NCBI GenBank assembly: GCA_010031845.1
Contig: RGYX01000009.1
Location: 1 to 12,570 of the forward strand
Length of the DNA stretch: 12,570 nt
Reading direction: 5' to 3'
Source of the DNA: Verrucomicrobiota bacterium
Lineage (GTDB): Bacteria > Verrucomicrobiota > Verrucomicrobiia > Methylacidiphilales > Verrucolacustridaceae
The notes under the pieces were generated by a model. The model was given only the letters and a program-made list of their open reading frames with translations. It did not search any database and had not been told where the DNA came from. Below, piece after piece: positions 7,241-12,570 of the stretch. Both the position numbers and the translations under genes were made by a program. Within the stretch, counting starts at the first letter, position 1. Every line of letters starts with the position of its first letter.

Positions 7241-7924
7241 TTAGTCGCCTTGGCCGGCTCCACCCCCTCCGCCCGCGGCGGCGGGGGCAGGGGCTCCGGC
7301 GGGAACAAACTGCCACCAGTGCTGTTCATTGATGGCGTAGATCGGCTTGTAGTGCTGGATCTGGCTGGCCGACCAGACGCTCTTGATCTGGTTGTCGAGG
7401 ATGAGGCATTGGCCCCCGTAAATGACGCCCAGAATGCAGTGACCGACCCCCAGGTTCAGATCTTTCACCACCAAAATCCGGAGCTCGTCCTGCGTGAAGC
7501 CGAGTTTCTGCAGGGCATAGTATTTCGCGATGGCATGATCCTCGCAGTCCCCGCTGATCCGACCCGGGACAAGATAATCGGGTCCTTGGGTGAACTGAAC
7601 CGGAGTGTTCCATAGGTCAGGCACGCCCCAGTTTTTTTGATCCGGCACGTAGCGCATGGAGTTGAAGGTTTCGTTCACCTTTTTGATCATCTCCATCCTG
7701 TCGGCCGCTTGGTTCTTTTGGACAAATTCCTCCCAACCCCCGGCATAAGGGGCATTAATGTCGGCCTTTTTTTGGAGTTCCTCGGCCACCGAGGCCAGAA
7801 TCCCCGTCCACTTGGGAAACTTGTCGATCGGATCCTGTTGGACCACCTGATACTCGCCGTCCCACGACCAGAGGCTTGTCGGGGCGAGGCCTGCGATCAA
7901 AAAGAAGATCCAAATCGTTCGCAC
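7241..7924 (-). CDS. LapG-like transglutaminase-fold cysteine protease (BTLCP family), exported
   Basis: This is a 227-residue protein with a signal peptide at about 1-20 (WIFFLIAGLAPTSLW). The remainder matches the bacterial transglutaminase-like cysteine proteinase family, whose best-known member is LapG, the periplasmic protease that cuts giant adhesins such as LapA. The triad is visible: C127 in SGDCEDHAIAKYYAL, H162 in VGHCILGV, and D177 in LILDNQ. The C-terminus carries an Ala/Pro/Gly tail (PAGAPAPAAAGGGGGAGQGD) that most LapG proteins lack. The start is GTG at 7924; an in-frame stop lies just upstream and the signal peptide begins there. It is divergent from a membrane sensor with a dead HD-GYP-like domain (96-base gap) and precedes valS. 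Proteolysis of a surface protein is likely from the family; the substrate is unknown. Confidence 0.87.
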   Translation of the reverse strand: MRTIWIFFLIAGLAPTSLWSWDGEYQVVQQDPIDKFPKWTGILASVAEELQKKADINAPYAGGWEEFVQKNQAADRMEMIKKVNETFNSMRYVPDQKNWGVPDLWNTPVQFTQGPDYLVPGRISGDCEDHAIAKYYALQKLGFTQDELRILVVKDLNLGVGHCILGVIYGGQCLILDNQIKSVWSASQIQHYKPIYAINEQHWWQFVPAGAPAPAAAGGGGGAGQGD

Positions 7925-8020
7925 AAAAAGGAATATACTCCATCAGGACGTGAAGGAAATACTTGAGCTGAGCCTCCCCTTCGAGGGATAGTTTTCCTTC
8001 AACCGAAAGGAACTCCCCCC

Positions 8021-10183
8021 ATGGCCGATACCCCTACTCCCGCCGCCCAAGATCCGTCGAAACTCAAGATTTCCGGCCCGAAAGTTCCTGAGGCGCCGGT
8101 CAAACGCCCGGTGAAGTGGACCACGGTGGCGGCCGGTGTTTTTCTGGTGGTGTTTGCCTTGGCCGGCTTCGGATTGGTGTGGCAGCAGGCGAATCAGAAC
8201 ATTGCCGACGAGAAGGCCAAGTTGCAGACCCAGATGAACCTGATCTTGGAGAGCCGGGCCAAGGATGTGGAAGGATGGCTCAAATCCCAATTCAACGTGC
8301 TGCGGAACGTGGCCACCAACGAGTCCCAGAAAATTTATATCGATGCCCTGCTGGATCCCAACACCCCGGCCGACCGCCGGGAAGGGGCGGAAACCTTCCT
8401 CCGTAATTACCTCAAGCGGATGGCCGAGGATTTCGGCTTCGTCACTCCTCCGCGAAAGCTGGAGATCGAGGCCAACGTGGTGCGGGATGGAATCGCCGGT
8501 CTGGCGGTGGTCAATCCGGAAGGGCAGATCTTGGTGGCGAGCGAGTTCGTGCCGGCCCTCAAGGAGGACAAGTTCCTCGATGTGTTGAAACAAAACGCCG
8601 CCCGCCAAAACGGCCTGTGGAACATCCATCTCGACCGGGAAAACGAGCCCAGCATGGGATTCCTGCTCCCCATCTATCCCATGGATGCCAAGGACAACGC
8701 CAAGCCGATCGCCTATGTCGTCGGCATCAAACAGGTGGCCAAGGAACTGTATCCGCTCCTCCAACAAGAGGGGGATCCCTACAAGAGCGCCGAAATCTAT
8801 CTGGCCCAGATCAAGGCCGGCACCGGCGACGGAACGGTCCAGTATGTTTCCCCGCGCCTTCTGCCAAAGCCCAACGGGATCAAGCCCTTTTCCTCCGATG
8901 AACCCAACGATGCGAGAGTGCGGGCCACCGCCTTTGCCATCGGCAAGCCGGGTGGTTTTGGAATTCTGCAAAGCTACCAGAACGTCAAATCCGTGGTCGG
9001 TGGGGTAAAGATCGACGGCACGCCATGGACCCTGGTCCGCACCGCAGATTTTTCGGAAACCGTCGGTCCCGCCATCAAGGAGCAACGGAAAGATCTCATC
9101 TCGTTTGGTCTGCTGATGGTCATCGCCGTGGTCTCCCTGGTCATCGCCTGGAAGCACGGGGCGGAACTGCGCGCCTCGGCGGAGGCCCAGCGCTTGAAGA
9201 TCGCGGCGGAGAGGTTCACCGGGTTTTCCAAATTTCTCCGCGTCATCACCGACAACCAGCCCACGGCCATCGCGGCGGTGGATGGGGGAGGGAAGTACAG
9301 TTTTGCCAACCGCACCCTGGCTGAGGCAGCCGGCATCGCCACGGAGGAGGTGGCCGGCAAAACCATGCCCGCCGTCATCGGACCCGTGCGGGCCGCGGCC
9401 TACCAGAAGATCAACAAGCAAGTCATCGACGACCTCTATCCCGGTTGGCCGGCGGATCGGACGGAGGGAAAATGGCAACCGCAGAAGGGACGCCATGAAT
9501 TCGAGGAGGGTGGGAAAAAGAAGTACACCAAGACCGACCACATTCCCTTGCGGGCGGACCGGGATCATCCTCCCGGGGTTCTGCTGATTGAGCAGGACAT
9601 CACCGAATTCATGCTGATCGAGGCGTTCGTCAAGGAGGTGGACAGCCGGCAGGCTGAAGCCGCCCGGACCAACGGAAAGCTCATCGCCAAACTGGCCCGC
9701 GGGGCCGCCGAAGAGATGGGGCTGAATCCCACCGAAGTGGAGACGGCCGAGCTGGCCGGGGAGTTACTGAATCTGGGGACGGTCTCCCTGCCGCACGATC
9801 TCCTGAGCAAGGGAGGCAACCGCAACGAGGACGAGAAGCGTCGCCTGCGGGAGGCCATTGTCCGGAGTGCCGATCTCCTTTCCGGTTTGGAATTCGAGGG
9901 ACCGGTGGCGGAAGTCATTCGGCAGGCGCAGGAGCGGGTGGATGGGAGCGGGTTCCCGAATCGTTTGGCCGGAGACGCCATTCTGCCCACGGCCAAAGTC
10001 GTGGCGGTGGCCAAGCGGGTGATTGATCTGTGGCAGGGTCAGGAAAGCTCCGCCCAGTCGTTGGATCAGGCCCTGAAAACGGTGATGGCTGAAGCCGGAA
10101 GTTCCCTCGACCGTGGGGCCGTGGCCGCTTTGGTCGACTTTCTTGATAACCGGGGCGGTCGAGCCAAGGTCGGGCTGGCCTGA
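8021..10183 (+). CDS. Two-TM sensor: extracytoplasmic domain, PAS, degenerate HD-GYP domain
   Basis: This 720-residue inner-membrane signalling protein has a cytoplasmic Pro-rich N-tail, TM1 at about 35-54, a roughly 300-residue extracytoplasmic domain (55-358, Cache-like layout with a long helix first), and TM2 at about 359-377. A PAS domain follows (about 400-530), ending LLIEQDITEF. A C-terminal HD-GYP-like region spans about 548-672. There the usual HD pair reads L583-N584 in AGELLNLGTVSLP. The HH of HHExxDGxGYP reads A636-Q637 in AQERVDGSGFP. The later metal Asp in VAD reads K665. DGSGFP is kept, so the fold is plausible but phosphodiesterase chemistry is not. No kinase, receiver or GGDEF domain is present. 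The ATG at 8021 has GAAAGGA 9 bases upstream. The gene is divergent from the LapG-like protease and 59 bases before a FecR gene. A receptor role is inference. Confidence 0.82.
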   Translation: MADTPTPAAQDPSKLKISGPKVPEAPVKRPVKWTTVAAGVFLVVFALAGFGLVWQQANQNIADEKAKLQTQMNLILESRAKDVEGWLKSQFNVLRNVATNESQKIYIDALLDPNTPADRREGAETFLRNYLKRMAEDFGFVTPPRKLEIEANVVRDGIAGLAVVNPEGQILVASEFVPALKEDKFLDVLKQNAARQNGLWNIHLDRENEPSMGFLLPIYPMDAKDNAKPIAYVVGIKQVAKELYPLLQQEGDPYKSAEIYLAQIKAGTGDGTVQYVSPRLLPKPNGIKPFSSDEPNDARVRATAFAIGKPGGFGILQSYQNVKSVVGGVKIDGTPWTLVRTADFSETVGPAIKEQRKDLISFGLLMVIAVVSLVIAWKHGAELRASAEAQRLKIAAERFTGFSKFLRVITDNQPTAIAAVDGGGKYSFANRTLAEAAGIATEEVAGKTMPAVIGPVRAAAYQKINKQVIDDLYPGWPADRTEGKWQPQKGRHEFEEGGKKKYTKTDHIPLRADRDHPPGVLLIEQDITEFMLIEAFVKEVDSRQAEAARTNGKLIAKLARGAAEEMGLNPTEVETAELAGELLNLGTVSLPHDLLSKGGNRNEDEKRRLREAIVRSADLLSGLEFEGPVAEVIRQAQERVDGSGFPNRLAGDAILPTAKVVAVAKRVIDLWQGQESSAQSLDQALKTVMAEAGSSLDRGAVAALVDFLDNRGGRAKVGLA

Positions 10184-10242
10184 GGCGGCGATTGCCTAAT
10201 CCCGATCGGCAGGATTCGGCTTGGGTGAATCCTTTTTCTGGC

Positions 10243-10762
10243 ATGAAAAAGGTTGTGAACCTTGGGCTCCCGGTCTTGTGGGGCGCCTTTTTTTGTGTGG
10301 GGGACCTGCCGGCTCAGGAACAAGGAGAGACAAAAATCACCGCGGTACGCAACCAGGTAACCAAGAGCGCAGAGGGCACGAACGCGCCGACCGATGTCGG
10401 GCATGCGTTGAAGTCCGGGGAAGCGGTGGAGACAGGGGAGCAGGGACTGGCGGAGCTAAAATCCTCCGATGCCACCACGGTGCGGATCGGCGAGAAGAGC
10501 CGCGTGGCTTATGACCCGAATGACCGGACGGTGAAGTTGGATCGGGGAATTGTGGTGGTGGATACACCATCGGAAGGAGGGCCGGTCAAAATTGATTTGG
10601 GTCAAAATTGATTTGGGTGGTTTGACTTACACCGTCACCACGGACGAGACAGATCTGACCAAGACAAACCAAGCCCAAAACACCGTTTCGCAAAAAAAAG
10701 ACCAACTCAGCAAAAGCAATTCAGCTGTCATCAAAGGGCAGTCAGCAGTAAATCCAAAATAG
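10243..10762 (+). pseudogene. Exported FecR-domain protein, frameshifted by a 16-bp tandem duplication
   Basis: The ATG at 10243 begins a signal peptide (KKVVNLGLPVLWGAFFCVG) followed by a FecR-type beta domain: ETKITAVRNQV, DVGHALKSGEAVETG, AELKSSDATTVRIGEKSRV, then VKLDRGIVVVDTPSEGG. The frame hits TGA at 10609-10611, giving only 122 residues. Removing one copy of the 16-bp duplication at 10585-10616 restores the frame through to TAG at 10760-10762. That reads VKIDLGGLTYTVTTDETDL and a Gln/Lys/Ser-rich tail, 167 residues in all. The N-terminal 90 or so residues resemble the FecR region of the gene at 11192. The reconstructed protein is short and lacks the usual GTTF strand after the VETP-like segment. 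It could be a recent pseudogene, a slippage-switched gene or an assembly error. It follows the sensor gene by 59 bases on the same strand. Confidence 0.8.
10585..10616 (+). repeat. Exact 16-bp tandem duplication
   Basis: GTCAAAATTGATTTGG occurs twice head to tail (10585-10600 and 10601-10616). Because 16 is not a multiple of three, the second copy shifts the FecR frame by one and brings in the TGA at 10609. Confidence 0.97.
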
Positions 10763-11173: not shown

Positions 11174-11191
11174 ATGATTCTTTTGTGTGAC

Positions 11192-12570
11192 ATGTGGTTA
11201 AGTCGTTTGGTGCGGACTTTTTTCGGGTTCTTGGGGATTTGCTTGTTCATGGTTGTTCCTGGTGATGGGGTCGCTGATGAACTTGGTTCCACCAAAATCA
11301 CGGCGGTCCGGAATCTGGTGGAGCACAATGACGGGCAAAACAAAAAAACCGCTGACGTCGGTCAGACGGTGACCCAAGGTCAGTGTGTATTGACCAAGGA
11401 GCAGGCCTTGGCCGAGTTGGTGGCGGATGACAGCAGCGTCATACGTTTGGGAGCGAACAGCGTTTTTTCCTATAGCTCGAAGGAGCGGATCGTGAAGTTG
11501 GACAAGGGCACCATGCTGATGCACACGCCTCCGGGTAACGGGGGTGCCACCATCGATTCCGGGGGCGTGGTAGGGGCGATCTCCGGCACCACCTTCATGT
11601 TGACCGCCAGTCCGGCCAAGTGCGCCCAATGCGGAAGTGAACTGGAAATCAAACCCGATGGAAAAATCGTCTGCCGTGATCACCCTGATTTGAAGCCGGC
11701 CAATTCCGGTTTTGCCCTCATTGTGCTGGAAGGTGGATCTGTCACCAAGGTGACGGGTCCGGATGGTCAGACCGTGGCGATTTCCCCGGGCCAAATGGCC
11801 GTGGTCGGGCCCAAGGGTTCCGGTGCCCCTAAGGTTTATGCCGTCAATGTGGCCCAGATCGCCCGGACCAGCCCGCTGATCAACGCCTTTCCCAATCCAC
11901 TGCCTTCTTTCCCGAAAATCGTGGCTACTGCTTACGGTTTGCAGGGGTACAACCCGAATCCCACCGGAACGAGTGCCGTGGCTCTGGGCTCGGGAGGGCA
12001 ACTGCTAACCGCGGTTTCGCCTTTGCCCAATCCCTTTCAGCTGTCCTTTCCCATGGCGGTCAATCAGCCCGGGGCCAACAACATCCCCAATAATATAAAC
12101 TTGGCCAACATCAACACGGCGTCCGGCGGCGGAGGTTCCGGCGGACCTGTCACGCCCACCGGCGTGGCTGGCGGAGGTGGCGGTTCTGCCGGACCGAGCA
12201 TTCCCACCCTTCCCGTTCCGCCACCCAATAACAGCCAGCAGGCCATTCCGGCAGGCGGCGCCACGCAAATCACTTTGTTGTCGGTTGCCGGAGCTTCCAT
12301 TACTCCGAAAATTTATGATGGCACAAAATCGGCGTCGATTGTGGGCGCTTTTCTTTCAGGGGCGGTGTCCTCGGGCGTCGCTCTCGCCAACGATACCGCC
12401 GGCCTCTTTGCCTCGAAGGATGTGGGCACGGGAATCGCTGTCACCACCGCCATGACCCTCACCGGTGCCAATGCCTCTCAGTTCGCCCTGAGCGGGCAAC
12501 CGACCTTGGCGGGCGACATCACTCCCAAGGACCTAAGGGTCGCCAACGCGGTGGTCACCATGAAAGTCTA
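11192..12570 (+). CDS. Secreted FecR-domain protein with zinc-ribbon-like insert and YDG repeats (partial, runs off window)
   Basis: The frame is open from ATG 11192 to the window end (459 codons, no stop). An in-frame ATG at 11174 is an alternative; neither start has a clear Shine-Dalgarno site. Residues 1-28 are a signal peptide (LVRTFFGFLGICLFMVV). A FecR-type domain spans about 35-205: TKITAVRN, DVGQTVTQGQ, AELVADDSSVIRLGANS, VKLDKGTMLMHTP, VVGAISGTTFML and later FALIVLEG. Between GTTF and IVLEG sits a CX2CX13CX2H insert (C144, C147, C161, H164). A Pro/Gly/Asn-rich linker (about 225-355) follows, with GGGG runs. A YDG domain spans about 369-447 (ITPKIYDGTKSAS to LAGDITPK), and K458-V459 plus TA at the edge begins a second. 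YDG repeats are typical of large surface adhesins. Role by inference: surface attachment. The paralogous FecR gene lies upstream. Confidence 0.85.
   Translation, partial: MWLSRLVRTFFGFLGICLFMVVPGDGVADELGSTKITAVRNLVEHNDGQNKKTADVGQTVTQGQCVLTKEQALAELVADDSSVIRLGANSVFSYSSKERIVKLDKGTMLMHTPPGNGGATIDSGGVVGAISGTTFMLTASPAKCAQCGSELEIKPDGKIVCRDHPDLKPANSGFALIVLEGGSVTKVTGPDGQTVAISPGQMAVVGPKGSGAPKVYAVNVAQIARTSPLINAFPNPLPSFPKIVATAYGLQGYNPNPTGTSAVALGSGGQLLTAVSPLPNPFQLSFPMAVNQPGANNIPNNINLANINTASGGGGSGGPVTPTGVAGGGGGSAGPSIPTLPVPPPNNSQQAIPAGGATQITLLSVAGASITPKIYDGTKSASIVGAFLSGAVSSGVALANDTAGLFASKDVGTGIAVTTAMTLTGANASQFALSGQPTLAGDITPKDLRVANAVVTMKV
12296..12532 (+). repeat. YDG repeat, first unit
   Basis: The coding repeat covers residues about 369-447 of the gene at 11192. 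It runs from KIYDGTKSAS through LFASKDVGTGIAVT and MTLTGANASQFAL to DITPK, matching the YDG/MBG-like repeat layout. The next unit begins with KV(Y) at residues 458-460, cut by the window end, giving an 85-residue period. Confidence 0.75.

What the first reader, a model, noticed from the sequence alone, without database searches (positions are those of the whole stretch)
7241..10183. LapG-like protease divergent from a membrane receptor with a dead HD-GYP-like domain: a possible alternative Lap-type switch
Seen: an exported protease with the LapG triad (C127/H162/D177) lies head to head, 96 bases apart, with a two-TM protein that has a large extracytoplasmic domain and a cytoplasmic PAS plus HD-GYP-like domain lacking metal ligands. 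Known: in Pseudomonas, LapD is an inner-membrane protein with degenerate GGDEF/EAL domains that binds c-di-GMP and sequesters LapG, sparing the adhesin LapA. Inference: here a dead HD-GYP could play the c-di-GMP-reading role of LapD's dead EAL, with the extracytoplasmic domain holding the protease. A repeat-bearing putative adhesin lies 1 kb further on. I know of no described system with this architecture, but I cannot search for one.
Basis: partly seen in the sequence, partly recalled or inferred. Interest (0 to 1): 0.7.

Follow-up and report, generated by a model that had tools for sequence, protein, structure and literature searches.

The report
Verrucomicrobial Dvh-type protease switch, many targets
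A freshwater bacterium carries its own version of a recently described protease-and-receptor switch, which seems to have lost the usual c-di-GMP clamp and may cut many exported proteins sharing a short tag, rather than one sticky surface protein.

Summary
In detail: a LapG-like protease (C127/H162/D177) lies 96 bases head to head with a two-TM receptor ending in PAS and an HD-GYP without metal ligands. 'No described system' is out of date: Desulfovibrio DvhG/DvhD (PMC13090378) has this architecture, and the receptor matches DvhD's PAS, HD-GYP and periplasmic structures. The pairing is conserved in 16 of 16 testable genus loci and in two of three distant alphaproteobacterial/Rickettsiales loci. 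New here: (1) 26 of 26 aligned close receptors lack DvhD's R650/Y652/R653 and GGDEF was found in 2 of 21 genus genomes, so c-di-GMP reading is doubtful. (2) The LapG-type site D-[IMV]-x-TA[AS]G occurs 51 times in the genus against 4 for a codon-permuted control, 38 of 51 in exported-looking proteins of several unrelated families, some ending TAAG-TM-RR. [DE]TAAGG[DE] also lies in a putative ECF anti-sigma factor. (3) The neighbouring adhesin's FecR part resembles a surface-anchoring domain, but its own site is degenerate (TASG). Reading: a Dvh-type switch rewired into a many-target protease. Cleavage is untested.

The parts
7241..7924 (-). BTLCP / Peptidase_C93 (LapG/DvhG-like) exported cysteine protease; triad C127-H162-D177, D126/E128 of the D-C-E calcium-site motif
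   Evidence: PF06035 57.8 bits; PDB matches 4u65 E 5.5e-18 and 4fgo E 5.3e-15; residues checked; triad invariant in the 6 sequences. Below the NCBIfam LapG equivalog cut-off, 91.6 of 320 bits
7925..8020 (.). 96-base divergent intergenic region
   Evidence: head-to-head order in 16 of 16 testable genus loci
8021..10183 (+). DvhD-like receptor, 720 aa: TM, dCache, TM, PAS, dead HD-GYP
   Evidence: phmmer to 9rc0 E 5.9e-23 and 9rbz E 6.8e-19, titled DvhD; Foldseek 9rc0 rank 1, DvhD periplasmic domain 9rc2 rank 3 with TMt 0.75
8192..9091 (+). extracytoplasmic dCache-type domain (about residues 58-357), the proposed protease-holding part
   Evidence: between the two hydrophobic segments; fold match to DvhD periplasmic domain 9rc2
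9233..9610 (+). PAS domain (residues 405-530)
   Evidence: PF08448/PF00989
9656..10114 (+). degenerate HD-GYP (residues 546-698): HD to LN, HH to AQ, GYP to GFP, R650-x-Y652-R653 lost
   Evidence: PF13487 E 5.5e-25; residue table
10192..10611 (+). short FecR-domain protein, 139 aa
   Evidence: PF04773 E 7.6e-6; weak hit to LapA retention module NF033682, 24.4 bits against cut-off 50
11174..12568 (+). FecR + YDG adhesin-like protein, signal-peptide-like N-terminus by eye, runs off contig
12116..12127 (+). degenerate LapG-type site TASG (residues 315-318, ANINTASGG) where some relatives have LDIxTA[AS]GG
   Evidence: alignment

Best explanation
This is a Dvh-type inside-out protease switch in Verrucomicrobia subdivision 6. 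The receptor's dCache domain binds and restrains the periplasmic BTLCP protease; a change in the cytoplasmic PAS/dead HD-GYP half (or a dCache ligand) moves the stalk and TMs and frees the protease. Freed protease cuts TA|[AS]G sites. Unlike Lap and Dvh, its targets in this genus are probably many unrelated envelope proteins: FecR-domain adhesin-like proteins, Sel1-like and TM-tailed proteins with a C-terminal TAAG, YHYH proteins, and a putative ECF anti-sigma factor. c-di-GMP is probably no longer the input, because the canonical clamp is gone. Shown here: sequences, homology to DvhD/DvhG, conserved pairing, residue losses, motif enrichment. Inferred: receptor-protease binding, the signal, cleavage, and what the cuts do.
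For: DvhD is the best solved-structure relative by sequence and is matched by fold for its three domains. Intact triad and D-C-E motif. Head-to-head pairing in 16 of 16 testable genus loci and in L144 and L145, 2 of 3 distant loci. PF06035 in 18 of 21 genus genomes, 1 of 39 others of the order and that below cut-off, over cut-off in 3 of 387 phylum-sample genomes, own included. R650/Y652/R653 lost in 26 of 26 aligned close receptors, kept as R-x-[YH]-R in 4 of 4 outside relatives; GGDEF in 2 of 21 genomes. D-[IMV]-x-TA[AS]G in the genus: 51 hits, reversed control 1, codon-permuted control 4, none of those 4 coding; 38 of 51 coding with signal-like N-terminus against 14 of 50 in the rest of the order. 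TM-RR tails. Anti-sigma-like protein by ECF sigma and HtrA-like genes with [DE]TAAGG[DE] in 61 of 66 relatives.
Against: No cleavage, binding or localisation data. Orthologous hits are not independent, so the p-value overstates the case; the fair unit is five multi-member clusters plus three singletons. The same pattern also gives 50 hits (reversed control 22) in 41 other genomes of the order, where no permuted control was run, and 14 of those 50 classify as exported by the same crude rule. The second pattern [DE]TAAGx[DE] is noisier, 60 against 21 reversed. The BatD-like family's motif lies inside a long protein and may be chance. The window's own adhesin has TASG; near relatives have TSAG, TSSP or TAGG there. 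This genome has a GGDEF protein with an intact motif. Of DvhD's c-di-GMP contacts, the aligned E668 is kept in 26 of 26, K582 in 22 and P567 in 18. L145's protease has N-C-K in place of D-C-E. The genomes are incomplete MAGs, so absences are uncertain.
Confidence: 0.5

Rival explanations
1. A faithful Dvh/Lap switch: the receptor reads c-di-GMP and protects one adhesin, the FecR-YDG protein next door, from the protease.
For: Architecture as DvhD; own genome has a GGDEF protein; aligned E668 kept; FecR part of the adhesin resembles the 5ix9 anchoring domain; FecR genes beside the receptor in the window and G011.
Against: R650/Y652/R653 lost in 26 of 26 aligned close receptors; GGDEF not found in 19 of 21 genomes; FecR genes do not follow the receptor in 12 of 13 other genus loci; the adhesin's site is TASG.
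Confidence: 0.2
2. The TAAG tag is real but is read by another enzyme (a sorting or processing protease not identified here); the BTLCP pair acts on something else.
For: TAAG-TM-RR tails look like LPXTG, PEP-CTERM and GlyGly-CTERM signals, which pair with other enzymes (PMC3237569, abstract).
Against: A cut between the alanines of [T/A/P]AAG is the known LapG/DvhG site (PMC13090378); matched genus genomes hold one BTLCP each and the sampled order and phylum almost none, while the motif is 1.50 per Mb in the genus and 0.42 per Mb in the rest of the order.
Confidence: 0.2
3. The tag is a by-product of a few gene families spreading in the genus (shared ancestry or composition) and has no role as a cleavage site.
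For: Hits are orthologous across 21 related genomes; some families share acidic linkers.
Against: Permuted codons give 4 hits, none coding; the clusters are unrelated by blastp at E 1e-5; by eye the motif stands out in variable linkers of the FecR proteins.
Confidence: 0.1

Closest known systems
DvhD/DvhG (DVU1020/DVU1019), Desulfovibrio vulgaris Hildenborough, PMC13090378
   Same: BTLCP protease next to a TM-dCache-TM-PAS-HD-GYP receptor without metal ligands; best sequence and fold matches
   Different: divergent genes here, one operon there; R650/Y652/R653 lost; no T1SS genes seen in the window; candidate targets many
LapD/LapG, Pseudomonas
   Same: LapG-like protease with C-H-D triad; inside-out logic
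   Different: no GGDEF, EAL or LapD/MoxY match in the receptor; protease is below the LapG equivalog cut-off
CdrA/LapG, Pseudomonas aeruginosa (PMC7484184, passages)
   Different: one adhesin there; several unrelated families here, some with a TM-RR tail
GlyGly-CTERM/rhombosortase (PMC3237569, abstract)
   Same: many-to-one pairing of a short motif, TM and basic tail with one protease
   Different: different enzyme class; here the motif also occurs near N-termini, in linkers and in an anti-sigma-like protein

Membership tests
Dvh system | BTLCP protease with C-H-D triad and D-C-E calcium motif | tested here: met
Dvh system | adjacent receptor with TM, dCache, TM, PAS, HD-GYP | tested here: met
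   dCache by fold match to 9rc2, Pfam dCache_1 only E 0.12
Dvh system | HD-GYP without metal-binding HD and HH | tested here: met
   LN and AQ
Dvh system | canonical c-di-GMP-binding residues R650, Y652 (and neighbouring R653) | tested here: not met
   Q, gap, S/G in 26 of 26 aligned close receptors; aligned E668 kept, K582 in 22 and P567 in 18 of 26
Dvh system | c-di-GMP binding and control of the protease | not testable with these tools
   needs ITC or nanoDSF and reconstitution
Dvh system | T1SS-secreted adhesin with retention domain and [T/A/P]AAG site in the locus | tested here: inconclusive
   FecR-YDG neighbour has an anchoring-like fold but TASG and a Sec-like N-terminus by eye; T1SS genes were not searched
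Lap system (LapD) | LapD/MoxY periplasmic domain with GGDEF-EAL cytoplasmic module in the receptor | tested here: not met
   none among the matches up to E 1
LapG equivalog NF045674 | score over curated cut-off 320 | tested here: not met
   91.6 bits
LPXTG / PEP-CTERM / GlyGly-CTERM type sorting signal | motif, TM helix, basic C-terminus in otherwise unrelated proteins, co-distributed with one enzyme | tested here: inconclusive
   met in form by the 342/355/384-aa proteins; other families carry the motif elsewhere or before an amphipathic tail; co-distribution seen only against order and phylum samples

The most novel reading that the evidence does not exclude
In this genus a LapG-type protease has become a general, regulated TAAG-processing enzyme of the envelope, a many-to-one shedding or sorting system. 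It is held by a DvhD-like receptor that no longer reads c-di-GMP. It also cuts an ECF anti-sigma factor in the periplasm, so that shedding of surface proteins and a transcription response share one protease.
Probability: 0.3. Interest if true: 0.85.

Novelty: new variant of a known kind. Interest (0 to 1): 0.6.

Why it matters
In the papers seen here, LapG-type proteases release one or two large adhesins per organism. If one of them serves a whole set of tagged proteins and an anti-sigma factor, it would be a new kind of regulated envelope processing in a Gram-negative phylum. It would also show how a c-di-GMP receptor can keep its output while losing its ligand. The prediction is sharp: named segments with Ala-Ala sites that can be tested with published reporter assays.

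Tried and rejected
LapD-type reading: rejected on domains. 'No described system': rejected. FecR-YDG gene as the conserved partner: rejected as a rule. Pattern [DE]TAAGx[DE]: 60 hits, reversed control 21; 30 of 60 examined, 12 of them the 154-aa family and several in short frames. YHYH homologues: T[AS][AS]G in the first 110 residues in 36, 18 and 2 of 40 in three rank blocks of the 120 listed of 4456; this follows relatedness and is only supportive. FecR homologues outside the genus: 1 of 14 with an acidic TA[AS]G (these 14 loci stand for 21 outside matches, and several are short frames). Genus FecR loci fetched without the motif: 9 of 15, two of the 15 cut off before the site. One search prints 16 of 22; I dropped 7 fetched by the motif. 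L087 and L093 were not put into; both carry TAAG. The 154-aa family: one search found 72 proteins, all 65-98% identical, so no divergent outside control; 66 of at least 134 aa were counted. No permuted-pattern control was run outside the genus. Literature: the listings (20 of 115; 20 of 30; 10 of 55; 5 of 5; 15 of 38) showed no title or abstract start on a BTLCP with many TAAG targets or in Verrucomicrobia; unlisted papers were not seen. PMC13090378's main text has no 'Verrucomicro', 'Alphaproteo' or 'FecR', but its figure 9b and supplements were not seen. The PNAS 2024 paper is not held and is known here through PMC13090378.
Full report
Check of the observation. The protease (7241-7924, -) is a Peptidase_C93/BTLCP protein (PF06035, E 1.5e-15) with C127, H162 and D177 and a D-C-E stretch at 126-128; the gap to the receptor is 96 bases. 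The receptor (8021-10183, +) has two hydrophobic segments (starting at 35 and 359), a PAS domain at 405-530 and an HD_5 domain at 546-698. Own-genome searches found one PF06035 and one HD_5 match; G000 is a 1.42 Mb, 369-contig, 72% complete genome and the window is the whole contig C348.

What organism. One protein of the 154-aa family carries the source name 'Candidatus Methylacidiphilales bacterium'.

It is a Dvh-type pair. The receptor's best solved-structure relatives by sequence are 9rc0 (E 5.9e-23) and 9rbz (E 6.8e-19), DvhD's PAS/HD-GYP and c-di-GMP-bound HD-GYP structures (titles). The receptor model (mean pLDDT 71.7, pTM 0.47, 30 sequences) matches 9rc0 first and the DvhD periplasmic domain 9rc2 third (TMt 0.75, rmsd 4.1). 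PMC13090378 (abstract, introduction, six result sections, discussion and one methods section read, passages besides) describes DvhG/DvhD with this architecture, an HD-GYP without metal ligands that binds c-di-GMP, and a model, not yet validated there, in which the dCache domain docks on the protease.

Conservation. PF06035 is in 18 of 21 genus genomes and, below cut-off, in 1 of 39 others of the order. In 16 of 16 genus loci (window included) whose contig continues past the protease gene, the receptor lies head to head with it; two more loci (L027, L037) end there. In the phylum sample, 6 of 387 genomes matched at E <= 0.001 and 3 passed the cut-off, own included. Three of the 20 named loci are distant (26-32% identity) and titled Alphaproteobacteria or Rickettsiales; two of the three, L144 and L145, have a BTLCP-like gene (33-34% identical to the window's) head to head with the receptor, and L143 has none beside it.

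c-di-GMP. Against the DvhD residues named in PMC13090378, all 26 close receptors aligned (67-98% identical, window included) have Q for R650, a gap for Y652 and S or G for R653, while 4 of 4 outside relatives keep R-x-[YH]-R. Kept in the 26: aligned E668 in all, K582 in 22, P567 in 18. In DvhD, changing R650 or Y652/R653 weakened stabilisation by c-di-GMP. GGDEF was found in 2 of 21 genus genomes, one being this genome, whose protein has an intact GGDEF motif and, by eye, an EAL part. I conclude that c-di-GMP reading is doubtful for the genus and open for this organism. The cytoplasmic half is nevertheless the better-conserved half (76-88% identity against 58-63% for residues 1-400 in most genus loci; 95 and 97% in the closest, L026), so it probably still has a role. 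The window receptor alone among those aligned lacks 12 residues of the PAS-HD-GYP stalk; I cannot tell a real deletion from an assembly fault.

Targets. Looking at FecR-type relatives of the neighbouring adhesin (16 of 21 genus genomes), I noticed LDIxTAAG after the FecR domain. A cut between the alanines of [T/A/P]AAG is the LapG/DvhG site. The pattern for D-[IMV]-x-T-A-[AS]-G gave 51 hits in 19 of 21 genus genomes with 1 for the reversed pattern, and 4 for the codon-permuted pattern, none of them coding. In 41 other genomes of the order there were 50 hits with 22 for the reversed pattern: 0.42 per Mb against 1.50 per Mb in the genus. By one uniform, crude rule, 38 of 51 genus hits lie in coding frames with a signal-like N-terminus, 5 are coding without it, 5 are cut at the 5' end and 3 are shadowed; in the order 14 of 50 are coding with a signal-like N-terminus, and 12 of the 50 are one recurrent D[VI]ATAAGQ family. 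The 48 coding genus hits fall into five multi-member blastp clusters (FecR-linked 21; Sel1/T2SSG-like 7; a cluster of 7 hits in 6 proteins, of which 4 proteins have a clear TM-RR tail; BatD-like by eye 5; YHYH 5) and three singletons (Pfam names; YHYH). The TM-tailed proteins end LEDVxTAAGVEE, hydrophobic stretch, RRK/RRR; one is in this genome (L279, ETAAGVEE). Orthologues are not independent, so the cluster count, not the p-value, is the fair measure.

A putative anti-sigma factor. A second pattern led to a 154-aa protein with one TM at about 67-85 and [DE]TAAGG[DE] at 125, on the expected periplasmic side. In L217, L222 and L225 its place is between a sigma-like and an HtrA-like ORF; for L216 the ORF list shows the HtrA-like side only. 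Pfam scans of the L222 set give Sigma70 region 2/4 and ECF, nothing for the 154-aa protein, and trypsin-like plus PDZ. Of 66 near-full-length relatives 61 have the strict motif and 65 have T[AS][AS]G. Much of the C-terminus is conserved too, so this is presence of the motif rather than independent proof. 'Anti-sigma' is inferred from gene order and topology.

Mechanism. Shown: homology, anatomy, conserved pairing, residue losses, motif enrichment. Inferred: the dCache domain restrains the protease, release leads to cutting at TAAG, and cutting frees membrane- or surface-held parts. The most novel reading is a many-to-one envelope-processing system comparable in logic to rhombosortase/GlyGly-CTERM (PMC3237569, abstract).

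Noticed in passing
window 8021-10183, after residue 531: The receptor lacks 12 residues of the PAS-HD-GYP stalk that its close relatives have (720 against 732 aa).
   Followed up: partly
window 10192-10611: The short FecR ORF is 139 aa, against 184 aa for its counterpart in L026; possible truncation or frame change.
   Followed up: no
L217, L222, L225: ECF sigma-like gene, single-TM protein with periplasmic [DE]TAAGG[DE], and HtrA/PDZ-like protease gene in one cluster.
   Followed up: partly
L144 5015-7805 and L145 7253-10067: BTLCP-like genes head to head with DvhD-like receptors that keep R-x-[YH]-R, in records titled Rickettsiales and Alphaproteobacteria.
   Followed up: partly
L079, L080, L083, L089: FecR genes lie divergent from genes for 356-387 aa proteins ending in F, as outer-membrane barrels often do; a possible secretion or anchoring partner.
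   Followed up: no
L282 1054-3069: GGDEF protein in this genome with RLGGDEF and HEALFR motifs; GGDEF found in only one other genus genome (G005).
   Followed up: partly
L143 1900-4002: DvhD-like receptor without an adjacent BTLCP gene in an 11.5 kb contig.
   Followed up: no
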